From the NCBI GenBank assembly GCA_006247105.1, contig VDLU01000045.1, forward strand, positions 1 through 12,390: 12,390 nt of DNA. The letters are read 5' to 3'. This document shows, in pieces, positions 581-12,390 of this stretch (positions are counted from its first letter, which is position 1; the number at the start of each line of letters is the position of its first letter). Made by a program: the position numbers and the translations under genes. Origin of the DNA: Giardia muris. Taxonomy: Eukaryota; Fornicata; Diplomonadida; Hexamitidae. The notes beneath the pieces are model-generated. The model did not search any database, was not told the origin of the DNA, and was given only the letters and a program-made list of their open reading frames with translations.

Positions 581-936
581 CCCACGAGCTGGAGGGCGTG
601 AACTCCGGACACCCACTTCTGTCACGAGTCCGGAGCAGTGAGCAGCCGGCATTGGCTCACACAGCCATGCACGACCTGGTGCCCTTCCCCGCTCTCCATC
701 CATGCCCTCAGACAGATCTGAGGAGGCCGGCCCTCCTTCATGGAGACGGGTTGGGATCAACCGGGGCTCATGGTCGTCCTCTCGTCCCTCCCGTGATCCC
801 GTTCACTCCTCTTGATCGAAGGACGAAGACCGGGGCACTGGACGATGACTGTTGATCCCGGAGGCCCATAGGAGGACCGACGGGGACTCCTTCATCTGGC
901 CGGGCCTTCCGACCTCCTGCCCCTGCCGGACGCAGG
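581..936 (-). other. Conserved 3' flank of ankyrin gene copy 1
   Basis: This 355-bp stretch follows the stop of copy 1 and is nearly identical to 10015-10369 after copy 2. Both contain an AGTGAAC hexamer-type sequence (TTCACT at about 804-809 here) that fits the Giardia polyadenylation consensus AGTRAA, although about 130 bp from the stop is far for Giardia. No gene in it is supported. The open frames on it overlap the end of the ankyrin gene or lack any feature. Confidence 0.5.
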
Positions 937-2589
937 TCATCCAGTGGGCGTTCCAAGGCCCTGGGGGTGGTTGGTGAGCCTGCCCCCGACAGCAGCGAGG
1001 TTCTGGAGGAGGATCCTCTTCTCCTCCTCCACCTCCTCGAGGCGTCTCCGAAGGTCTTTCATGTCATGGCTCTCGGTCCTCAGTTGGGCGTTCTCCTTCT
1101 CGAGGACGAGGTTCTGGGCCTTCTGGTCTGCGAGTGCTCTCTTGAGGTCCTCAATGGTCTTGGAGAGCTGCTCCTGAAGAGTCGCCTTCTCGGTGGTGAG
1201 GGCGTTGATGAGGGCTCGATTCTGGTCAGAGGCCTTTCGAAGGTCCTCGTTCATCTCCGCATGCCTCTTGGACTCATTGATAGCATTGTCGAGCTGCTGT
1301 TTGAGAGAGGAGACTTCTGCAGTTAGCTGATCGATCTGAGCCCTGTCCTGTCGTTTCCTGTCCTCGAACTGTTTGTGGAGGATATCGTTCTCTTTGTTGG
1401 CCTTCTGGAGTTGTTGTTTGAGAGAGGAGTTTTCCTGATTCAGTTGGGATAACTCCTTCTTTGTCTCCTCTAGGGTATTCTTGGAAGAGGAGAGGTCTTT
1501 CTTGAGGGAGTCGTTCTCAGTGGCGAGCTTGTTAACACGATCCCGGAGCCTAGGCACTTCACCGGGGTTATGTGGCGGGGGGATTCGCTCTGTCCCCTCA
1601 TTTTCGAGGAGCTGATGGACTCGGGTGAAGTCGCCTCCCCACGATACCCCATTGTTCGCATGCCATTGAGCTGTATGACCTTTGGAGTCCTTCATTCCCT
1701 GTTCGTAGGGGAGAAGGAGCTCAACGATCTTGGGGTAGTTGTAGTGGGCTGCGATCATGAGAGCGGTTGCTCCGGAAGGGAAGGCAATTCCATTAAAGTT
1801 GAACTTTCGTTCCTCCGTTGACTGCTTTCCCGCCTCGGAGAGGAGGAGTCGGGCGCAGTCCGTCTTGCCATTAAGGGCGGCCCACATCAATGCGGTCAAT
1901 CCATCTTCGTCCTGCATCCCAATTTCCTTTTCTAGGAAGGGGATGCAATTAGAGTGGCCATATTTTGCGGCCATCATCAGGGCTGTCATCCCGGTCGGAT
2001 CCTGATATCCAACACGATCCAGATGCTTCTTGACTCCCTCAATGTCTCCGGTGACTGCGGATACCATAAGCGGTGGTTGCTCTTTCGGGGGAGGGAGTTG
2101 TTCCGTGCCCTCGTTCTTGAGGAGCTGACGGACTCGAGTGAAGTCACCTATCTTTGTGCTGTTGTTCGCATGCCATTGAGCTGTGTATCCTTCAGAATCC
2201 TTAAGTCCCTGTTCGTAGGGGAGAAGGAGTTCAACGACATCGGGATGGTTCTGGTGGGCTGCGAGCATGAGTGCGGTTGTTCCGGGAGGATAAGTGTTGA
2301 GAAGGCCCTTCCATTCCTCTGTCGTCTGCTTTCCTGCCTCAGAGAGGAGGAGTCGGACGCAGTCTGTATAACCGTCGGAGGCTGCCAACATCAGTGCGGT
2401 CCGTCCACAGTTGTCCTGCATCCCGATCTCCCTCTCAAGTAGGGGGATGCAGTTGGCGTTACCTTCCATTGCGGCATACATCAAAGCCGTCCATCCATTT
2501 TTGCTCTTCTCCCCAACTTGATTGAGGTTCCTTTTCACGTCCTCGAGGTTGCCAAACATGGCCGCCCCCATCAAATCTGTAAGGGACAT
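937..2589 (-). CDS. Ankyrin-repeat and coiled-coil protein, 'protein 21.1'-like, copy 1 (intact)
   Basis: Intact 550-residue protein. The ATG follows TTCAAAA, an A-rich initiator-like context that is also conserved in copy 2, which supports this start. Residues about 1-340 hold two blocks of ankyrin repeats with the TALM.AA and LLL signatures. Each block carries a CIP.LE.EIGMQD repeat and an ELLLPYEQG...TAQWHANN unit. Residues about 350-535 are a long heptad-like, Glu/Lys/Gln-rich coiled coil containing two SSLKQQL segments, and the tail is Gly/Pro-rich. No signal peptide or membrane segment is seen, so it is probably cytoplasmic or cytoskeletal. Ankyrin repeats bind proteins and coiled coils oligomerise; the partner is unknown. 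Giardia genomes carry a large family of such ankyrin proteins, many called protein 21.1. It is transcribed away from the VSP cluster. Confidence 0.93.
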   Translation of the reverse strand: MSLTDLMGAAMFGNLEDVKRNLNQVGEKSKNGWTALMYAAMEGNANCIPLLEREIGMQDNCGRTALMLAASDGYTDCVRLLLSEAGKQTTEEWKGLLNTYPPGTTALMLAAHQNHPDVVELLLPYEQGLKDSEGYTAQWHANNSTKIGDFTRVRQLLKNEGTEQLPPPKEQPPLMVSAVTGDIEGVKKHLDRVGYQDPTGMTALMMAAKYGHSNCIPFLEKEIGMQDEDGLTALMWAALNGKTDCARLLLSEAGKQSTEERKFNFNGIAFPSGATALMIAAHYNYPKIVELLLPYEQGMKDSKGHTAQWHANNGVSWGGDFTRVHQLLENEGTERIPPPHNPGEVPRLRDRVNKLATENDSLKKDLSSSKNTLEETKKELSQLNQENSSLKQQLQKANKENDILHKQFEDRKRQDRAQIDQLTAEVSSLKQQLDNAINESKRHAEMNEDLRKASDQNRALINALTTEKATLQEQLSKTIEDLKRALADQKAQNLVLEKENAQLRTESHDMKDLRRRLEEVEEEKRILLQNLAAVGGRLTNHPQGLGTPTG

Positions 2590-2600
2590 TTTTGAACATC
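2585..2600 (-). promoter_or_regulatory. A-rich initiator at the ATG of ankyrin copy 1
   Basis: The minus strand reads GATGTTCAAAAATG into the start codon, and the same 14 bases precede the ATG of copy 2 at 8409. AT-rich sequence at or just before the ATG is the usual Giardia core promoter with a very short 5' leader. The conservation between otherwise diverged 5' flanks suggests it is functional. Function is inferred, not shown. Confidence 0.5.
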
Positions 2601-2716
2601 AAACGTCCACTTTCACCAGCCTTCCACTGAGGCTCCCATCTGACACTCTGGGCATCCAACCACTACCACCTACCTGCCCCGAGGACGGGAGGCCCACAGC
2701 TCTCCTCGGGATGCTC

Positions 2717-3314
2717 GTTGGGGCCTCCTCGCCCCCACAAGCCAGCCCGATCGCATCCATAACCCCTGGAAGCCGTTGATGCAGGTCGTGCAGACGTCCT
2801 TGCTGTCTGGACGGGATACACAGTTGGAGAGGACGCACTTCGTACAGGCGACGGGAGAAGAGGAGGAAGAGTGGTGGCCCTCGAGGCACTCCGAGCACGT
2901 GAAGGCGTTCGAGGCGTAGGTGCACGTCCCGCAGTTCTCTTTTCCTCCATTTGTCGCATCGCTACAGAGGTAGAGGTTCTTATTACTACCATCCGTCTTG
3001 ACGAAGGTGATCGCACCATCAGCTGCCGTCTCACAAACACCGTTGGTGGCCGTCTTGCAGAGCTGCTTTCCAACCCCCTGTGTCTGGTCATAACAGCCTC
3101 CCTCGAACAGGAAGTAGTTGTTGGTAGAAGGGTCCCTGCCACCACTGGCCGCCTTGTTGCAGCCCGAGCACACACCACCAGTACAGTCAGCAGTCGTAAC
3201 GGTGCTTGGATCCGCACAAGCCCCATTGATCGGGGCCTGGTTCGTGTCACTGCACTTCTTGCAGAACTCTCCCTCAACCCCCGGGATGGTGAAGGTCGAA
3301 CCACCCCGTCTCAT
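2717..3314 (-). pseudogene. VSP-1: VSP fragment lacking signal peptide and membrane tail
   Basis: Open minus-strand frame beginning at ATG 3314-3312 with MRRGGSTFTIPGVEGEFCKK and followed by typical VSP sequence: CKKC, CSGC, FEGGCY, CGTC, CSEC, CTKC and CTTC motifs. The first residues are not hydrophobic, so there is no signal peptide. The ATG lies 20 bp after the stop of VSP-2 and is probably fortuitous. VSP similarity ends near CINGFQG (about 2760). The frame then continues into sequence at the inverted-repeat boundary and stops at 2670, so the membrane segment and CRGK tail are absent. Complete VSPs are surface antigens exported to the trophozoite membrane; this piece could not be anchored. 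A role as a recombination donor is inference. Confidence 0.8.
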
Positions 3315-3329
3315 CCTTCCCCTTCACCA

Positions 3330-3335
3330 TTCACT
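3330..3335 (-). promoter_or_regulatory. Polyadenylation-type signal overlapping the VSP-2 tail stop
   Basis: The minus strand reads AAG TGA GTGAATGG, so AGTGAA shares its first base with the last base of the TGA stop. This fits the Giardia AGTRAA consensus and the known placement at VSP 3' ends. Confidence 0.6.
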
Positions 3336-5318
3336 CACTTCCCCCTGCATCCGAACCACCAACCGAGGAAGCCCCCGAGGCCCCCCAGGACCAGCAGGAC
3401 GGCGATGACGATCCCCGCAATGGCACCCCCAGAGAGCCTGGAAGAACTGGAGGAGGGGGAGGGGGGCAGGCATCGTTGGTGGGAGTGGAGCCGTCCCAGC
3501 AGAGGGTGCACTTCCCATTTGGACAGGAGGTGCACCCACTGGGGCAGGCCATGCAGTCGGAGGGGCTGGTCACAGTAGTGGTGTTGTAGTACCCAAGGGC
3601 ACAGGAGCTGCAGGCGGTCGAGGAGGTGCAGGCCCCGCACTCCTTCGGACAGGCCGTGAAGGCGCCTGAGGCTGTGTCGAGGATGAAGGGGGCATTGGGG
3701 GCGGGAGTAGTGCACTTCCCGTCGACAGCCGTCTGGCACAGCTTGCTCCCGACCGAAGTCCCGGTGGTCGAAGATACAGGATAGCAGCCTCCCTCGAAGA
3801 GGAAGTAGCTGTTCGTATTACCGGTCACAGTCGGATTCTTGCAGCTCCCGCACCTCGTGGCACTGGACGAGACGGGGTCAGTCCCGGCCTCGTTGAGGCA
3901 GATGTCGTTGGCGCCTGCCGCCCTCGTCGTCTTCTTGTTGACGGCGGCCAGGGGCGTGCAGGTCCCGTCAAATGGAACGAAGCCGGAAGGGCACTCCTTG
4001 CAGACGGTCGTGCTCCCAACAAGAAGCTGGTTCTTCAGAGGGCAGATCTTGAGGTCCGCCGCCTTCTGGGGAGAGAAGCATCCGCCCTGATAGGCCAGGA
4101 AGCCGTTGAGGCAGGAGGTGCAGTAGCCGGAGGACCCCGTGCAGATCTTCGTGTTCGCATCGACGCACTCTCCGTTGATCGGGTTCTTCCCAGTTGGACA
4201 CCCGACACAGACGAGCCCCGAGCCGAGGCCGAAGTCGAGGCAGCTCTCGCAGTTGTCGGGGCACTTGCTGCAGGTCGTGATGGAGAGGGAAGAGTTGTAG
4301 GTTGGGCCGAAGCCGCTCTTGCACGCCTCGCACTGGCTCTTGTCAGTGTTGCAGGCTCCACAGTTCTGGAGGTCGCAAGGCTGGCACGTCCCGTACTGCT
4401 GACCGGCGTCGGGGGTGTAGAAGAAGCCCTCGGAGCACTTGTCGGCATCGCACTTCTTGTGAGATTGATCGGCGTCGCACTGGTCGCAACCCTCGGGACA
4501 GGCCTTGCAGGTCGAGTCGAGGTAGAAGGTCGGCATGCACTTGGTGCAGGTGTCGGCGTCCGTGCACGTCTTGCAGTTCTCGGTCTTGCACTTCGTGCAC
4601 TTGTTTCCGTCCTTGAAGTACCCGTCGGTGCAGGTCGTGCAGGTGTTGGCATCGGAGCAGGTCAGACAACCGGCGGGACAGGCCGTGCACGCGCCCTTGT
4701 CGAGGTAGAACCCGTCCGCACAACCCGAGCAGGTGTTGGCAGCATTCGCCTCGATGCAGTTCTCGACCGAGCAGGAGAAGCAGTTGGCCTTGGTCGAGTC
4801 GGGAAGAAAGCCGGGGTTGCAGGTCGTGCAGGTGGCCGCGGAAGCACTGGTCGCCGTCCCCGTCTTGCAGTTCTGGGGCAGGGCGGGACAGCCCGAGATA
4901 GCGCCATTCGACGTGAAGGGGACGGACCCGGGGAGGCAGGCCTGACAGGTGACGGTCGAGGCGTAGGTGCACGTCTCGCAGTTCGCCACTCCTCCGCTCG
5001 AGGCGTCCCCGCAGGGTAGAGCTTCCCGTCCTTGAGGAAGGCCCCAGATGCCGCCGTCGTGCAAGCACCGCTGCTGGCCGCTGAGCAGAGAATGCTCCCG
5101 GGAGAGGACGCCTGGTCGTAGCACCCCCCGTTGAAGAGGAAGAGGGTCCCGGACGTCCCACACGACTCACACGTGCCATCGGCAGTTGGGGACTTCTGAG
5201 TACAGTCATTGCCTGGAGTCCCACACTTCCCATTGATCGGGGCCTCACCCGTCTCACTGCACTTCTTGCATAACTCTCCCTCAACCCCCGGGATGGTGAA
5301 GGTCGAACCACCCCCGTC
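3335..5318 (-). pseudogene. VSP-2: near full-length VSP body, frameshifted, no start codon
   Basis: About 660 codons of VSP sequence in three minus-strand frames. The 5' part (5318-5014) starts right after an in-frame TGA and has no Met; it carries FTIPGVEGELCKKC and NGGCYDQ. A one-base loss near 5014-5016 (in CTACCCTGC) moves the reading into the main frame, which is open from there to 3331. The main frame holds more than twenty CxxC motifs and a FEGGCYP near the C-terminus. A second shift at the C-rich tract 3454-3466 separates it from the tail, which carries SSSSRLSGG, a hydrophobic segment containing AIAGIVIAVLLVLGG, then WWFGCRGK and TGA at 3335. No signal peptide exists, and the preceding VSP tail is about 20 bp upstream. 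It is a VSP by composition, GGCY and tail; it could not make a normal surface protein as written. Confidence 0.88.
3454..3466 (-). other. C-rich frameshift tract before VSP-2 membrane segment
   Basis: On the minus strand TGC is followed by CCCCC T CCCCC before CTCCTCCAGTTC. With the run as written, the upstream Cys-rich frame reads into Pro residues and ends at 3331 in a non-hydrophobic tail. The frame with the membrane segment and CRGK is reached only with one more base (or two fewer). The same position is out of frame in VSP-3 with a different run length. Confidence 0.75.
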
Positions 5319-5337
5319 TCATCCTTCCCCTTCACCA

Positions 5338-5343
5338 TTCACT
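5338..5343 (-). promoter_or_regulatory. Polyadenylation-type signal overlapping the VSP-3 tail stop
   Basis: Same arrangement as at VSP-2: AGTGAAT beginning at the last base of the TGA stop, matching AGTRAA. Confidence 0.6.
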
Positions 5344-6964
5344 CACTTCCCCCTGCATCCGAACCACCAACCGAGGAAGCCCCCGAGACCTCCCAGGACC
5401 AGCAGGACGGCGATGACGATCCCCGCAATGGCACCCCCAGAGAGCCTGGAAGAACTGGAGGAGGGGAGGGGGGCAGGTCCCATTGAAGGACGACCCGTCC
5501 CAGCAGGTCGTGCAGGCCGTCGTGTTGCATCCCGTGCAGCCCGAGTGGTAGATCGAGCACGCCTTGCAGTCGGGGGTGGCTCCAGCTGTGGTGTTGGCGT
5601 TGTAGTACCCGAAGCCGCAGGACGTGCAGGTGACGGCACCGTTCGAGGAGGTGCAGGCCCCGCACCCCGGGACCTTCGAGGAGCAGGAGGTGAGGACGGT
5701 CCCATTGAGGTAGAGGCCCGAGGTGGTATTGACAGCATTACAGACCCCACCAGAGGCCGAGGTGCAGGCGCTCTTCCCGACCTCCGTGGAGGCGTTGTAG
5801 CAGCCCCCGTTGAGGAGGAAGAAGTTAGTGGTCGAGGACCCGGTCACGTCCTGGCACTTCCCGCACCTCGTGGAGGACGCATCGAGGGCGGTTCCGTCCT
5901 CCTTCTGGCAGATCTGGGTCGCCCTCGTCACGTTCGTCGAGGCGACCAGAAGGCATTCTCCGTTGATCGGGACGAAGCCCGGCTTGCACTCGGAGCAGAC
6001 GGTCGTGTTCCCGACCAGGAACTGCTTCTCCTTCGCACAGACGCCCAGCTCGGCGGCCTTGAAGGTCGAGTAGCATCCCTCGAGGTAGGGGACGTATCCA
6101 TTGAGGCAGGACGTGCAGGTGCCGGAGGAGTCGGTGCAGACCTTCTTGGTGGTCTCGTTTGCAGGAACACACCCCCCGTCGATCGGGGCTGATCAGTCGG
6201 ACACTCGGTGCAGACGAGCCCGGACCGAGGTAGGAGGTGCAGTTCTTGGACAGGAGTCGCAGGACGCAGGACGTGATGGCAAGGGAGGAGTTGTAGGTCG
6301 GGCCGAAGGGGGGAGGCAGGCCGAACAGGTCTTCTCGTCCGTGTCGCACGTCTTGCAGTTCTGGACGGTACAGGCCTTGCAGGTCTTGTCATTCTCTCCA
6401 ACAAGGCCGAAGCCGGGAAGGCAGGACTTGCAGGTGAAGACCTCTCCGGCACGGGAGGTGGTCGAACCTCCGTTTCCACCTGAGTTCCCTCCTGGAGTTG
6501 GGGCATAGGTGCATGTACCGCAGTTCTCTTTTCCTCCTGCATCTTCTGAGGTGTCACTGCAGAGGTAGAGAACCTCACTCTTGATGAAGGCGGGGGAGTT
6601 ATCCTGGAGAACAGTGCACTTCCCAGCAACCACGGTCTTGCAGAGCTTGTTCCCGGGAGAGGAGTCCGTCTTGTAGCACCCACCATAGAAGAGGAAGTAG
6701 TCCGTTCCTGTTCCACATCCCGTACAGACACCATTGGCACATTCAGCAGTCGTAACGGTGCTTGGATCCGCACAAGCCCCATTGATCGGGGCCTCACCCG
6801 TCTCACTGCACTTCTTGCAGAACTCTCCCTCAACCCCCGGGATGGTGAACTTTGAGTTTGCATCGCACTCTCCCGTAGCTCGAGCCTTCACCTCCACCGA
6901 GCCCTCGAGGACGTCGATCTCCGGTGCTGCTCTCCCGGAGGAGCGGTCGATCGTCCCGAGCATT
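5343..6964 (-). pseudogene. VSP-3: VSP copy with several frameshifts and CRGK tail
   Basis: VSP features run from about 6890 (TGECDANSKFTIPGVEGEF) to the CRGK stop at 5343, spread over three minus-strand frames. In order: CKKC, CTGC, FYGGCY, CGTC, CKSC, CKAC, CKTC in frame one, up to about 6310; then a shift in a C run (6307-6312) into the FGPTYNSSLAIT segment; another shift around 6236-6260 before SGLVCTEC; another near 6184-6188 (CAGCCCCGATC) before DGGCVPANETTKK; then a long intact run with LLNGGCYN and many CxxC motifs down to the C-rich tract at 5463-5473; and a last shift into the membrane segment. The nearest ATG is 6964-6962, but it is not followed by a hydrophobic signal. Homology to VSP-2 across the FGPTYNSSL region places each break. 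Clear VSP pseudogene, or a read with several homopolymer errors. Confidence 0.85.
5463..5473 (-). other. C-rich frameshift tract before VSP-3 membrane segment
   Basis: Here the tract after TGC is CCCCC T CCCC, one base shorter than in VSP-2. It too is out of frame with the membrane segment; the Cys-rich frame instead ends at 5332 in an unrelated C-terminus. The tracts are 12 and 11 bases (counting the C of TGC). Both would be in frame at 13 or 10. Confidence 0.75.
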
Positions 6965-8282
6965 GCGGGTCGTCCGGGCTCAGACCTCAGGCATGACGAT
7001 CCCATTGGGTGGTGCGAAGACCGATCCTCCTGGAGCGGACCTAGTTGGGAGCTGCTGGACGGTCCTGAGTTGTGTGGTCTTGCACCAAGGTCTGGGATGA
7101 GAGGGGAGGGGCCTGTCAGGCTGCGGTCGAGGAGGCGGGCTCTATGACGACTCCTCACCAAGTCCTCTCTCCATCTGTCGGCAGGACTCCGAGCTCCTGG
7201 ACGTCTGGTGCGTCCTCCCAGTGGTCCCGTCCCTGAGCCACGGTCTGAAGGGCGTGAGGAGCCACAAACCGGGCCCCTGCTCGAAGTCCTTCGTTCGTCA
7301 ACGATCTGCAGGACGGGCCTCCTCTCGTGGCCAGGAGCACACGTCCACGACCTTCCATATCTCCTCGGATGCTCCCGTCCCTCCAAACTCATACTTGGTG
7401 GGCAACGAGGACAGACAGCACGGCCTTCTTGTCGTCCCTGCCCCGAGGGAAGGCTCGAAGTGGTCATGATGGGGACTGCTTCTCGACTTCCGGAGAGGAG
7501 TAGTGGACGAGGTATCCCGACGTCATGCCTCTTCGACTCCTTGAACGAGCCGGGACTGAGAGTCCTCACGAAGGTCACGACCTCGAGGAGGAGCGGAGAG
7601 AGTCGTCTGTAATCCCAGAGCCACGGGCCGAGATGAGTCGACAGGAAGGGATGTCCGTCATCCAGCACAAGGGTCCTGGCCTCTCGATCCCAAGGACCTT
7701 GCAGGCACGGTTCCCAGTCCTCGTCGTGTGGTCCCATCCGAAGAGCTGAGTCATGAGACACCCGTTGATGGAACAGGGGTGATGAGGACTGCAGTGCGAC
7801 GGGAGGTGCCCACAAGGACGTCGTGGAGTGGACGGACGAACCGTCTCGTGCAGGAATGGGGCCACGGGACAGGCCACCGGTGTGAAAGGACGGACGGGAG
7901 AGGGGAGCAGTAGGTCTTCATCAGGCCGGGCAGTCTGGAAGGACTGAAGGACTATCGTGGGCACCACTGGTTCGGACAGCAGTGATGGCCTCTGGTGCAG
8001 GACGGCTCGTTGTCGTCCCAGGCCGTGAGCCCGCCCACATTGGACGACTCCGGCTCCTCGTTGGCAGAGATGGGACGTGTCCCTCCCCAACGGCCAGGGA
8101 GAGAGGACGAGCATAAGTCGGGGGCGTCTCCCTTCTGAGTCTGGATGCGAGTTGCACGTCAGCCAGCTTGGACCCACGCCTATCTGGAGGGGCCGGAAGG
8201 CTCTTCACCCTGCCATTGAGTGGGTGGGGAGCTATAAGGGGAGACTGATGACCAGTGGGAGCTCATTCGGGGACGAGAGAAC
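6965..8282. other. GC-rich region without supported gene
   Basis: This 1.3-kb stretch separates VSP-3 from the right repeat arm. The VSP-3 frame remains open on the minus strand up to 7815 and other open frames exist on both strands (for example 7575-8177 and 7208-7612). Their translations have few Cys, no CxxC array, no hydrophobic signal, no ankyrin signature, and mixed Arg/Pro/Ser composition typical of non-coding frames in GC-rich DNA. I looked for a VSP signal peptide upstream of VSP-3 and did not find one. Giardia intergenic spacers are normally very short, so a gap this long fits a non-expressed, rearranged region. Confidence 0.5.
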
Positions 8283-8396
8283 CCCGAGGAGAGCTGTGGG
8301 CCTCCCGTCCTCGGGGCAGGTCGTTGGTAGTGGTTGGATGCCCAGAGTGTCGGATGAGCGGGAAGGGGGAGCCTCAATCCGAGGAGAGTTGATGCT

Positions 8397-8411
8397 TGAT
8401 GTTCAAAAATG
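8397..8411 (+). promoter_or_regulatory. A-rich initiator at the ATG of ankyrin copy 2
   Basis: GATGTTCAAAAATG leads directly into the start at 8409, identical to copy 1. An earlier ATG at 8400 is in another frame that closes quickly, so the start is taken as 8409. Confidence 0.5.
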
Positions 8412-10014
8412 TTCGATACGGATTTGATGGAGGCGGTCAAGAAGGGAGACCTCAAGGGCGTGAAAAGGAATCTCAGTCAGGCTGGGAAACAGGATGGATA
8501 TGGTGGGACGGCCCTGATGTGGGCTGCAATTAATGGCCGCGCCGATTTCATCTCCCTACTTGAGAAGGAGATTGGAATGCAGGACAACAGGGGATGGACC
8601 GCATTGATGCTAGCCGCCCACAAAGGCAATACGGATTGTGCCAGACTCCTCCTCTCAGAGGCCGGGAAGCAAACGACGGGGGAATGGATTGGCTTTCCCC
8701 CCGGGACGACCGCTCTCATGACGGCAGCTCATCGGAATTATCCCGAGATTGTTGAGCTCCTTCTCCCCTATGAGCAGGGAATGACTGATTCCAAGGGTCA
8801 TACCGCTCAATGGCATGCAAACAGCAGTCCAGAGAAAGGCGACTTCACCGAAGTCCGCAAGCTCCTCGAGAACGAAGGGACAGAGCGAATCCCTCCTCCG
8901 AGAGAAGAATGTCTGCTTATGGCATCTGCAATCACTGGAGACATCGAGGGAGTCAGGAAGCACCTGGATCGTGTCGGATATCAGGATCCGACCGGGACGA
9001 CGGCATTGATGATGGCAGCAAGCTATGGTCACTCTAATTGCATCCCCTTCCTAGAAAGAGAAATTGGGATGCAAAGCAATGATGGGACGACCGCATTGAT
9101 GAAGGCCGCAATGAAAGGTCACACTAGTTGCATTCCCCTACTTGAGAAGGAGATCGGGATGCAGGACAACTCTGGATGGACTGCATTGATGCTGGCCGCC
9201 TACCATGGCAATACGGACTGCGCCCGGCTCCTCTTCTGAAGCGGGGAAGCAAACAACGAAGAGTAGTGGGATCACCTCGAATGGCAAAACAGTTCCCTTC
9301 CCTTCCGGAATGACGGCTCTCATGCCTGCAGCCTACTTCAACCGCCCTGAAATCGTCCAGCTCCTTCTTCCCTACGAGCAAGGATTAAAGGATTCCGAAG
9401 GACACACTGCCAAGTGGTATGCAAACAACAGTCCAGAGAAAGGAGACTTCACCCAGGTCCGCCAGCTCCTCGAGGACGAAGGGATAGAACGACTTCCTCC
9501 ATCAAGTCCTGGACTAACCAATCAGGAACATATCAACAAGCTCACAGCTGAGATCGAGTCTCTCAAGAAAGACCTCTTCTCGTCCAAGAATGCCCTAGAG
9601 GAGACAAGGAAGGAGCTATCCCAACTGAATCAGGAAAACTCCTCGCTCAAACAGCAGCTCGACAATGCTATCAATGAGTCCAAGAGGCATGCGGAGATGA
9701 ACGAGGACCTTCGAAAGGCCTCTGACCAGAATCGAGCCCTCATCAACGCCCTCACCACCGAGAAGGCGACTCTTCAGGAGCAGCTCTCCAAGACCATTGA
9801 GGACCTCAAGAGAGCACTCGCAGACCAGAAGGCCCAGAACCTCGTCCTCGAGAAGGAGAACGCCCAACTGAGGACCGAGAGCCATGACATGAAAGACCTT
9901 CGGAGACGCCTCGAGGAGGTGGAGGAGGAGAAGAGGATCCTCCTCCAGAACCTCGCTGCTGTCGGGGGCAGGCTCACCAACCACCCCCAGGGCCTTGGAA
10001 CGCCCACTGGATGA
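8409..10014 (+). pseudogene. Ankyrin-repeat and coiled-coil protein copy 2, one frameshift
   Basis: Paralogue of 937-2589. The first frame (8409-9239, 276 codons) encodes MFDTDLMEAVKKGDLKGV, an ankyrin block with TALMWAA, TALMLAA, ELLLPYEQG and TAQWHAN, then a second block ending at DCARLLF and a TGA at 9237-9239. Copy 1 has CARLLLSEAGKQ here; copy 2 continues with SEAGKQTT in a different frame (open to 10014), so two bases are missing, or one is extra, around 9231-9236. The second part has one more ankyrin unit (PYEQGLKDSEGHTAKWY) and the coiled coil, whose last 120 or so residues and their codons match copy 1 as far as I can compare. Only one of the two SSLKQQL segments remains. As written it yields a truncated ankyrin protein without the coiled coil. 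A sequencing error is possible. Confidence 0.88.
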
Positions 10015-10369
10015 CCTGCGTCCGGCAGGGGCGGGAGGTCGGAAGGCCCGGCCGGATGAAGGAGTCCCCGTCGGTCCTCCTATGGGCCTCCGGGATCAAC
10101 GGTCATCGTCCAGTGCCCCGGTCTTCGTCCTTCGATCAAGAGGAGTGAACGGGATCACGGGAGGGACGAGAGGACGACCATGAGCCCCGGTTGATCCCAA
10201 CCCGTCTCCATGAAGGAGGGCCGGCCTCCTGGATCTGCCTGAGGGCATGGATGGAGAGCGGGGAAGGGCACCAGGTCGTGCATGGCTGTGTGAGCCAATG
10301 CCGGCTGCTCACTGCTCCGGACTCGTGACAGAAGTGGGTGTCCGGAGTTCACGCCCTCCAGCTTGTGGG
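10015..10369 (+). other. Conserved 3' flank of ankyrin gene copy 2
   Basis: Nearly identical to 581-936 in inverted orientation, with only a few base differences seen, including a small indel around 10227-10240. It contains AGTGAAC at about 10144-10150 as the only AGTRAA-type signal noticed. No gene is supported. Confidence 0.5.
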
Positions 10370-10517
10370 TCGTGAGTGGAACCGTGCACGTTGGACATCT
10401 CGTTCTCCGGACCAACGCCCCTTGAAGGAACCCGTAGACGCATGGGTCGCAATCCCATGTCAGGATGGTACCGCAACGACAAACGCTCTGGGGTCCTAAG
10501 CACCTCTGTATAAGCAC
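10366..10517 (-). pseudogene. Possible zinc-finger remnant crossing the repeat boundary
   Basis: The minus-strand frame through this region encodes a Cys pattern with C-x-C, then about eight residues, C-x2-C, then about sixteen residues and C-x2-C (CRCGTIL, WDCDPC, RCPTC). This spacing could be a zinc ribbon or part of a RING-like finger. The frame is open upstream to a TAG near 10578 and downstream into the repeat arm (to 10155), where it no longer looks coding. There is no convincing start. It may be a fragment of a host gene cut by the rearrangement that placed the arm, or chance. Confidence 0.25.
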
Positions 10518-11009
10518 ATGATGCAGGATGGTTCCCCTCGATGAGGAGGGCTCAACGACGACCAGTTCGACAGCACTCTACGTGAGCGGCACCTTCTTTG
10601 CGGCATCCTCAGGCCATATGGCCCGGAAGTCCGGCAGTACCGTCGGGGATGGAGAGCCGTGGTTGAGGAGCAGGGTGCGTGCTGAGGTCGAGGTCACCGT
10701 GCTGGCGGTTATGACGATGGATGCGCCCCCACTTCCCTATCCATCCTTGCCATCCTCCCCGTCCTGGGCCGGGGGGCCTCATCGCCTCCACTTACGATGG
10801 AGGAGTCCCGTACCTTCTCCCGTCCCGCGTGACGTGCCAGTCGAGGAGAATCCGTCCAAAAAAGAGCAAGGCCTCGACACGACCGGTTAAGCACCCCGAA
10901 CCCGCCCCCTGTCCTCAAAGGGCCGCTTTCCCCTTGACAAGCCCCCGACGCTTGAGGGACGCGAAAGATCGGCATCCTCATCAACCATGATGATTCCACC
11001 ACCAGGCCA
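10518..11009. other. Unassigned interval between repeat arm and Rep element
   Basis: Open frames occur on both strands (plus 10528-10890; minus to 10709), with Pro/Ser/Arg-rich translations and no domain signature. I cannot choose a coding strand. Base composition is GC-rich up to about 10960 and then becomes more balanced toward the Rep-like element. Confidence 0.4.
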
Positions 11010-11434
11010 CCCCCTGCCTGATAATGAGCAGGAGATGCTTTAATAGTGTTGGTTTCACTTAGACGCGGAAGACGGACTTCGATGTATCTTGGCTCCTCGC
11101 CCCCTAGGAGTAGTACGCGGACACGGTTATCTATTGATTGACGCATGATCGCGTCCCTGATGAGGCGCCTCGGGACAGTTATGCGTTCGTATTGGTCTGA
11201 ATCTAGGTTGTATGCCCACGTCCAGCAGTACGTCTTTCCGTTACGCCTGTCGATGTGAATGTCTCCTACGCGGTGTCAGCACCAACAGTCGTTGCAGAAG
11301 ACCATCCAACCATTTTGTGGGCAAGTGTACCACTCTAGACAGTGCGTTTCCTCTTCTTGTTCGGTCCTGATTGTCTCAACTTTGTGGGGCAAAAAATGGA
11401 GCCAAGTAAGAGGCGACCTCCTACACCACGCCAT
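11010..11434 (-). pseudogene. Unknown Cys/Trp-rich ORF divergent from the Rep remnant, one in-frame stop
   Basis: On the minus strand a frame beginning at ATG 11434-11432 runs leftward with a single TGA at 11278-11276 and stays open to 10709. Before the TGA it contains a compact Cys block (WYTCPQNGWMVFCNDCWC). After it comes a strongly protein-like stretch (HIDRRNGKTYCWTWAYN, DQYERITVPRRLIRDAI, PRYIEVRLPRLSE). CP..G...FC.DCWC resembles a metal-binding motif, but I cannot name a family. It lies back to back with, and slightly overlaps, the start of the Rep remnant. Some CRESS genomes place a second gene divergently in this way, so it could be a gene of the same element; capsid identity is not supported by any motif. 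It could instead be a separate host gene fragment. Confidence 0.4.
11390..11398 (+). promoter_or_regulatory. A-run directly before the putative Rep start
   Basis: Six A bases lead into ATG at 11396. A-rich sequence at the ATG is the usual Giardia start context, so the element may have used host-type initiation. This start puts the motif I position about 15 codons in, as expected for Rep proteins. Confidence 0.35.
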
Positions 11435-12374
11435 TAGGTATTCACGGCGCGGGAGGAGCCATTACGGATGGTGCCGTCTGATTTATCCTCTCGCGTGCGA
11501 TATGTTGTCTGGCAGCACGAGAAGGCTCCCACGACCGATGCATGCTCAAGGATATGCTGAATTCACCGATTTCTCACGCTTTACAACAGCGCGATCTTTC
11601 TTCAATTACCTGAAGGAACGCACCTTGAGGTTCGAGCGGGTACACGTTCTCAAGCACGAGACTACTGTAGGAGGGAGGAGACGCGTGTTGATGGATCCTG
11701 GAAACAAGGCACTTGGCAGCCTGAAAGGGGTAGTGCTGCTCGCCTTTTTGGAGGCCAGACGCTGAGGAGTTCCTTCGTTCGTGGACGACTCTGCGAACGT
11801 TGCTGATCTGTCTATAGATCGAGACGCTCTCGTGCATCGCTTCCCTTCTATCTTTGCACGGGAGTCTAACTTGTTTGCTTATGGACTTGACGTCTCCTCA
11901 ATGCCCGCATCTCGACCGTCGACATTAAGCTGTTCGACTGGCAGATCGCTCTGCCTCGTCACCTACGCGCCCCTAGACGAGGAGGAGCTTTTGGAACTGG
12001 CCACGAGTCTGCCACTGGTAAATCGACGTTCGTCAGTACTTGGCACGTGTCGAGTTTCGTCGCGTTCTTATCCCTCGTTGGTCCTTGAGGGATCTCCTCC
12101 TTGCGTACGTCACTGGATCATAGCCTTCAGTATGCCACGCGATGCACAGGAGGAGTTCTTGCAGGACCGCACGTATCCGACCACGCTCGAACGTACCTCT
12201 GATGGAGGTATCCAGATGTCAGACAAGTATATGTCCTGTCAGAAGTACGTTGATGCTCATGTGATCGTGACCGCGAACACCTCTCCTCTATACGAGAAGC
12301 TCCCGAAGTGCATCGTTGAGATCTACCTCGACCTTCATCTATGGTCTGTGCATATTGGGTGCTCGTGTTCCTAG
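11396..12374 (+). pseudogene. rep: Decayed CRESS-DNA-type Rep (HUH endonuclease plus SF3 helicase)
   Basis: Rep motifs occur in the correct order over about 980 bp, the length of an ordinary Rep gene, but in alternating plus frames. After ATG 11396 and a TAG at 11435 comes a motif I-like VFTARE (11438-11455), then RYVVWQHEKAP (11498-11530). Next are motif II HAQGYAEF with its H-x-Q (11541-11564) and motif III RDYCRREE with the Tyr at 11663. The helicase part shows Walker A ATGKST (12011-12028), a Walker B-like WIIAFSMPR (12114-12140) with the usual acidic residue missing, DKY (12222-12230) and motif C-like HVIVTAN (12258-12278). It ends at TAG 12372-12374. Breaks: the TAG at 11435, and shifts near 11534-11540, 11600-11627, 11765-11800, 11893-11905 and 12050-12095. 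Rep nicks and rejoins circular ssDNA for rolling-circle replication; this copy cannot. Rep-like sequences are known from Giardia and Entamoeba, and Vilyaviridae have been linked to Giardia. The KY...HVIV spacing recalls nanovirus/plasmid-type Reps. Confidence 0.82.
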
Positions 12375-12390
12375 AGGTCAGTCGGAACAA

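What the first reader, a model, noticed from the sequence alone, without database searches (positions are those of the whole stretch)
11396..12374. Fossil CRESS-virus Rep gene in a Giardia antigen region
Motifs II and III of a rolling-circle HUH endonuclease (HAQGYAEF; YCRREE) and SF3 helicase motifs (ATGKST; MPR; HVIVTAN) lie in the right order and spacing across about 980 bp, yet in frames that alternate between two phases. That is the signature of an old integrated Rep copy decayed by small indels. It sits next to VSP and ankyrin paralogues and in visibly less GC-rich DNA. It is direct evidence of past contact between this lineage and a CRESS virus or Rep plasmid.
Basis: partly seen in the sequence, partly recalled or inferred. 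Interest (0 to 1): 0.85.

Follow-up and report, generated by a model that had tools for sequence, protein, structure and literature searches.

The report
Broken viral Rep gene in Giardia muris
Near one end of chromosome 1 of the mouse gut parasite Giardia muris lies a broken copy of the replication gene of a small circular DNA virus, in a species where a published check for known relatives found none, so the ancestors of this parasite too probably met such viruses.

Summary
The fossil Rep is real, but the window overstates its damage. The window is contig C41 of an assembly that fits Giardia muris. It matches the left end of chromosome 1 (C1) over 11 kb with no substitution and 20 indels, 19 of them bases missing from C41, so some broken frames here are probably assembly errors. 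In C1 the nearest gene on each side (ankyrin; ankyrin-kinase) is open, yet the Rep stretch still changes frame three times between its motif blocks, and an in-frame stop stands beside motif I in all three contigs. Decay is probably genuine. The endonuclease block is significant (PDB nanovirus-type Rep E 7.8e-8; Pfam Viral_Rep E 7.2e-6; one locus in the genome; 0 of 14 control genomes). The helicase rests on motif order and spacing only; direct alignment was not significant. The relic is one subtelomeric locus joined to core chromosome; no capsid gene or origin was seen. Kinsella 2020 examined G. muris and reported no Narya-, Nenya- or Vilyaviridae element. Endogenous Reps in Giardia are a known kind; this is a new member, probably the first from G. 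muris. Its virus family could not be tested.

The parts
11417..12332 (+). Rep relic as a whole (limits approximate): motif I region to end of the last helicase block
   Evidence: same locus on C1 about 10298-11194 and C40 about 19419-20290
11417..11539 (+). Motif I region of the HUH endonuclease (VFT ... RYVVW) with an in-frame stop directly before VFT, in 3 of 3 contigs
   Evidence: alignment of this part alone is weak (17.7 bits in C1); chained N-terminus reached by 8 of 150 shuffles
11541..11602 (+). Motif II block (HAQGYAEF)
   Evidence: in one open frame with motif III in C1 and C40, not in the window
11603..11728 (+). Motif III block (YCRREE; arginine where the recalled YxxK motif has lysine)
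12011..12025 (+). Walker-A-like block (ATGKS); the first glycine of the recalled GxxxxGK[ST] pattern is not there
   Evidence: 20 bits, E 0.12 against P0001 182-195 in contig C40
12108..12332 (+). Later helicase block with MPRD and motif-C-like HVIVTAN
   Evidence: no Pfam or PDB match and no convincing plasmid or phage match
10832..11237 (+). Left neighbour: diverged copy of a telomere/rDNA-associated repeat (first 188 bp 95%, whole 411-column alignment 75%)
8409..10014 (+). Ankyrin-repeat/coiled-coil gene, split in two ORFs in the window, one open 535-aa frame in C1
2670..7815 (-). VSP genes; in C1 one is an open 827-aa frame with GCRGK tail, another keeps a 551-aa part with that tail, the rest is broken there too
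   Evidence: Xu 2020 describes pseudogenised VSP arrays at telomeres
937..2589 (-). Ankyrin-repeat/coiled-coil gene, 550 aa, open in C41 and C40, cut by the contig start in C1

Best explanation
A fragment carrying the Rep gene of a CRESS-type virus (HUH endonuclease plus, probably, SF3 helicase) became joined to the left subtelomere of chromosome 1 of a Giardia muris ancestor, next to a telomere/rDNA-associated repeat and an ankyrin-kinase gene, and then decayed by nonsense and frame-changing mutations. Shown: Rep homology of the endonuclease block, position in a chromosome contig, one locus, a stop and frame breaks shared by contigs. Inferred: that the donor was a virus infecting this lineage, that integration came through Rep's own nicking or through break repair, and that it has no function now.
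For: Endonuclease block: PF02407 E 7.2e-6, 26.6 bits over the cut-off of 26; PDB 6h8o/2hwt E 7.8e-8 and 9.2e-8; complete metagenomic Rep P0001 (PF02407 + PF00910) E 2.7e-9 by tblastn against 1.7 kb of C1, composition correction off; 0 of 2000 shuffles for each of three references. One locus in 9.74 Mb by three queries; 0 of 14 control genomes. Host-joined: C1, 2,823,333 bp, with host genes to the right. Decay: three frame changes and an in-frame stop in C1, while the nearest gene on each side is open there (535 and 690 aa), as is one VSP (827 aa). Helicase motifs in order with SF3-like spacing, 0 of 5000 resamples and 0 of 428 tiles.
Against: Helicase blocks match no profile or protein significantly; a genome search with the helicase family PF00910 gave 14 matches, none at this locus; Walker A and motif III residues depart from the recalled canon. 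No capsid gene seen, no nonanucleotide origin in C1 9600-11600; target-site duplications were not looked for. Protein searches with the two whole ORFs found no relative. C1 is itself PacBio-based and part of its VSP frames at this end are broken too, so some remaining frame changes could be errors shared by the contigs.
Confidence: 0.84

Rival explanations
1. The gene is intact in the cell, and all breaks are uncorrected long-read indels near a contig end.
For: C41 and C40 differ from C1 by indels only (20 and 19 events, no substitution; C41-C40 34 events); most are bases missing in C41 or C40, and 11 of 20, 18 of 19 and 25 of 34 lie in homopolymers; the C41-only break between motifs II and III is such a difference. 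VSP frames at this end are partly broken in C1 as well. Xu 2020 (passages) reports indel correction of the PacBio assembly with short reads; correction may fail in a stretch assembled three times (inference).
Against: The stop directly before motif I is in 3 of 3 contigs, which show no substitution among them; three frame changes within about 0.8 kb of C1, while the gene on each side is open (535 and 690 aa) in the same contig. Broken telomeric VSPs are published as pseudogenes.
Confidence: 0.12
2. The Rep came from a bacterial rolling-circle plasmid of the gut rather than from a virus.
For: Plasmid p4M RepA is detectably related to the endonuclease block (score 65, 0 of 2000 shuffles) and to P0001 (E 4e-4). 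Kinsella 2020 (introduction passage) cites such an origin as a proposed alternative for protozoan Reps.
Against: The block scores far higher against P0001 (103) and the viral PDB Rep piece (111) than against p4M (65); no plasmid match to the ORF that holds the block at E 1 and none in one scan of genome contigs, which finds close relatives only.
Confidence: 0.06
3. Contaminating episome or assembly chimera not joined to Giardia DNA.
For: The window itself ends inside or just after the relic.
Against: C1 runs through the relic into host genes and on for megabases, and C40 agrees with it to C40's end at C1 11473.
Confidence: 0.03

Closest known systems
Endogenous Rep and Rep+Cap elements of Giardia duodenalis and donor family Vilyaviridae (Kinsella 2020, PMC7493932, passages and section 8)
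   Same: Rep-derived sequence joined to Giardia DNA
   Different: Different Giardia species; that paper examined G. muris GCA_006247105.1 and reported none of the three families there; this one is short, no Cap was seen, and kinship to Vilyaviridae is untested
Rep-like genes of Giardia intestinalis and Entamoeba (Gibbs 2006, known from citation only; Liu 2011, PMC3198968, passages)
   Same: Kind of element and kind of host
   Different: For Giardia, only G. intestinalis in the passages seen
Nanovirus-type Rep endonuclease (PDB 2hwt, 6h8o; virus name recalled)
   Same: 40% identical over the motif II-III block, the best PDB matches (35.4 and 35.2 bits against 15.7 for the next Rep)
   Different: Lysine of motif III is arginine here; helicase not comparable
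P0001, a 307-aa metagenomic Rep with PF02407 and PF00910
   Same: Motif II-III block 41% to 49% identical, by aligner
   Different: Its own best PDB match is 7lar (120 bits), and its helicase does not align significantly with the relic

Membership tests
CRESS-type (Cressdnaviricota) Rep, by descent | HUH endonuclease domain related to Viral_Rep | tested here: met
   PF02407 26.6 bits, cut-off 26, in the C1 frame; PDB E 7.8e-8
CRESS-type (Cressdnaviricota) Rep, by descent | Motif II HxQ and motif III YxxK (recalled canon) | tested here: inconclusive
   HAQ present; motif III reads YCRR, lysine not kept
CRESS-type (Cressdnaviricota) Rep, by descent | SF3 helicase domain after the endonuclease | tested here: inconclusive
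   Ordered motifs at fitting spacing (0 of 5000, 0 of 428), no significant alignment, no PF00910 match here
Endogenous viral element | Joined to host chromosome on both sides | tested here: met
   C1 and C40 span the left side; C1 runs on to the right, C40 to C1 11473; by assembly, reads not available
Endogenous viral element | Disrupted frame in the best contig | tested here: met
   Three frame changes and one stop in C1
Vilyaviridae | Rep falls in the family's clade | not testable with these tools
   No member sequence reached; four viral-contig scans gave no confirmed relative, and the 17 contigs are all of 5.9 kb or more
Vilyaviridae | Linked capsid gene in ambisense or antisense order | tested here: inconclusive
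   None seen: left neighbour is a repeat copy, right neighbour an ankyrin-kinase gene, no Pfam family in two flank pieces at E below 0.2; about 180 and 280 bases between are unassigned, and a partial insertion would lack it anyway
Bacterial rolling-circle plasmid Rep | Closest relatives are plasmid Reps | tested here: not met
   No plasmid match at E 1; p4M scores lower than the viral references

The most novel reading that the evidence does not exclude
The relic comes from a cressdnavirus lineage outside Vilyaviridae, perhaps nearer nanovirus-type Reps, so that the Giardia muris line hosted its own, undescribed CRESS virus family.
Probability: 0.3. Interest if true: 0.6.

Novelty: new member of a known kind. 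Interest (0 to 1): 0.45.

Why it matters
Giardia duodenalis/intestinalis is the only Giardia with published CRESS elements in the passages I saw, and the one published look at G. muris that I found was negative. A Rep relic in G. muris, commonly used as an in vivo mouse model (Xu 2020, passage), would widen the virus-host link to a second Giardia species and make the age of that link testable by looking at the same chromosome end in other Giardia. It also suggests that searches with known viruses can miss decayed elements, and that small contigs of this assembly carry false frameshifts.

Tried and rejected
Protein database searches with the two open C1 pieces found nothing at E 0.1; a third, restricted to the endonuclease block, gave P0001 at E 0.042. 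Viral contigs: four scans, no relative; the 17 contigs were not examined further, since none was of CRESS genome size. Genome contigs: one scan, none. PHROGs and NCBIfam: none for four C1 pieces. Weak rows set aside: AAA_29 E 0.11 for the Walker A piece, two designed proteins at E 0.038 and 0.068 without a passing stretch, one phage-collection Rep at E 0.6 for the endonuclease block.

A minus-strand ORF left of the relic (10709-11275) was considered as a capsid gene and rejected: most of it lies on a diverged copy of a repeat; of the 20 further rows, 18 hold the part that resembles the window. A Rep-like string on contig C25 was considered a second relic and rejected: no Pfam or PDB match, and the two other copies looked at do not read it. 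Three near-identical 'copies' were rejected as separate insertions: no substitution among them.

A chained alignment test against P0001 was noisy: whole locus reached by 3 of 150 shuffles, N-terminus 8 of 150, helicase 49 and 35 of 150. A structure model of the 63-residue endonuclease block was poor (mean pLDDT 50.6) and no fold search was run on it. An intron as cause of the frame changes: a recalled Giardia splice pattern has no match with up to one mismatch in the window, and the first frame change lies within about 40 bases.

Changed after checking the draft: the statement that VSP frames are open in C1 was too wide (only one is long and open), so the best reading went from 0.85 to 0.84 and the assembly-error rival from 0.10 to 0.12; the capsid row was moved to inconclusive.

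Full report
What the window is. The window is the whole of contig C41 of an assembly of 9,737,486 bases in 52 contigs. Its contigs C3 and C4 measure 1,296,710 and 1,289,658 bases, matching the 1.297 and 1.290 Mbp chromosomes given for Giardia muris by Xu 2020 (PMC7641422, passages; that text counts 59 contigs). VSP frames end in GCRGK, the tail that paper describes for G. muris.

One locus, three contigs. A DNA search with 11000-12390 found three places: C41, C1 9860-11252 and C40 18980-20373. Window 1160-12390 aligns with C1 1-11252 with no substitution and 20 gap events, 19 of them bases missing in C41, 11 in homopolymers; C40 against C1 has no substitution and 19 gap events, 18 in homopolymers; C41 against C40 has 34, 25 in homopolymers. 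Separate insertions or alleles should show substitutions, so this is most likely one chromosome end assembled three times with uncorrected indels. C1 looks like the better version: the ankyrin gene that is two ORFs in the window is one 535-aa frame in C1, and one VSP is an open 827-aa frame there. It is not free of breaks: another VSP keeps only a 551-aa part in one frame and a third is in pieces, which fits the pseudogenised telomeric VSP arrays of Xu 2020 but could also hide errors. C40 carries LSU, 5.8S and SSU rRNA genes at 2733-7054, left of the part it shares with the window, so the locus is subtelomeric. To the right C1 runs on into an ankyrin-kinase gene of 690 aa, another ankyrin-like frame and a kinesin-like frame (ankyrin repeats by Pfam, the kinase, second ankyrin and kinesin names by eye).

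The endonuclease block. In C1 motifs II and III lie in one open frame of 186 aa, whose first 90 or so residues match nothing. The block scores 26.6 bits for PF02407, E 7.2e-6; in the genome search C1 and C40 reach 27.5 bits and C41 25.4 (26.8 with its neighbours), with 0 of 14 control genomes ringing. From the window alone one piece reaches 17.3 bits. Against solved structures the 63-residue block matches 6h8o and 2hwt at E 7.8e-8 and 9.2e-8, then 2hw0 at E 0.14; that the first two are a nanovirus Rep is recalled. The one database hit is P0001, 307 aa with PF02407 and PF00910, E 0.042 in 5.8 billion proteins; on the locus itself it aligns at E 2.7e-9. Shuffled blocks never reach the observed score against P0001, the PDB piece or p4M RepA (0 of 2000 each). 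Searching the genome with PF02407, P0001 and the PDB piece finds only this locus.

The helicase blocks. ATGKS, MPRD and HVIVTAN follow at distances that fit an SF3 helicase, and a TGK[ST] plus motif C pair 65-95 codons apart is absent from 5000 Markov resamples and 428 tiles of other G. muris DNA. This pattern was chosen after seeing the sequence. Direct comparison gives little: 20 bits at Walker A in C40, no significant chain, AAA_29 at E 0.11, no PF00910 match at this locus among 14 in the genome, no other Pfam, PDB or phage match, two designed proteins without a passing stretch and three plasmid rows at E 2 to 5. I hold the helicase likely, not shown.

How it is broken. In C1 the blocks stand in frames 0 (motif I region), 1 (motifs II and III), 2 (Walker A) and 0 (MPRD and HVIVTAN), and a stop stands directly before VFT in 3 of 3 contigs. 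In the window the phases are 1, 1, 2, 1, 1, 2, 2; the change between motifs II and III is not in the other contigs. The motif III lysine and the first Walker A glycine are also gone, by recalled canon. Since the gene on each side is open in C1, at least part of the damage is probably genuine. I name no change that would undo it.

Borders. On the left, 10832-11237 is a copy of a repeat; of the 23 rows, three are this locus and 18 of the other 20 hold the part that resembles it. It is 95% identical over 188 bp and then strongly diverged; contig C25, which carries it, ends in TAGGG arrays. On the right an ankyrin-kinase frame begins inside an ankyrin repeat, and similarity to its paralogues starts 234 to 256 bases into the query in the rows of that part, near C1 11478 (40 of 179 candidates were scored); the bases before are matched only by C1 itself and C40 in that list. 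So the relic may sit at a breakpoint of that gene; I did not show an empty site.

Composition. GC of the relic is 0.534, ankyrin genes 0.543 and 0.544, a core stretch 0.523, VSP region 0.622. Kinsella 2020 (section 8 read) gives 59% for vilyaviruses and reports lower GC in endogenous copies, which fits an old copy but proves nothing.

What was known. Rep-like sequences in Giardia intestinalis/duodenalis were reported in 2006 and 2011 and a near-complete virus insertion in 2020 (PMC7493932, PMC3198968, passages; the 2006 paper known from citation). Kinsella 2020 states that the G. muris assembly GCA_006247105.1 held no element of Naryaviridae, Nenyaviridae or Vilyaviridae (passage). The words virus and viral do not occur in the main text of the G. 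muris genome paper. Ten searches of the held open-licence library (seen as listings, with passages of five papers) showed no report of a CRESS element in G. muris; the 2022 family description was not held.

Which virus. NCBI places Vilyaviridae in Cirlivirales. The block is nearer the nanovirus-type Rep than the other PDB Reps (35.4 against at most 15.7 bits), but nearly as near to P0001 (scores 111 and 103), whose own best solved match is 7lar. Sixty residues do not settle a family. Membership of Vilyaviridae is neither shown nor excluded; the published negative leans slightly towards a distant or different lineage.

Verdict.

Noticed in passing
window 2670-7815: VSP frames are more broken in C41 than in C1, where one is an open 827-aa frame with GCRGK tail and another keeps 551 aa; gene counts made from the small redundant contigs may be misleading.
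   Followed up: partly
L024 (C40) 2733-7054: C40 joins an rDNA cluster (LSU, 5.8S, SSU) to the left end of chromosome 1.
   Followed up: partly
window 581-1317 and 9634-10369: Two 99% complementary inverted-repeat arms (597 and 138 bp pieces) flank the VSP array and hold the ends of two ankyrin genes.
   Followed up: no
window 10832-11237: Diverged copy of a telomere/rDNA-associated repeat; 18 other places in the list hold this part, at 97-100% to the C25 copy.
   Followed up: partly
L022 1475-3561 (C1 11475-13561): Ankyrin-kinase gene right of the relic starts inside an ankyrin repeat, as if its 5' part were lost at the junction.
   Followed up: partly
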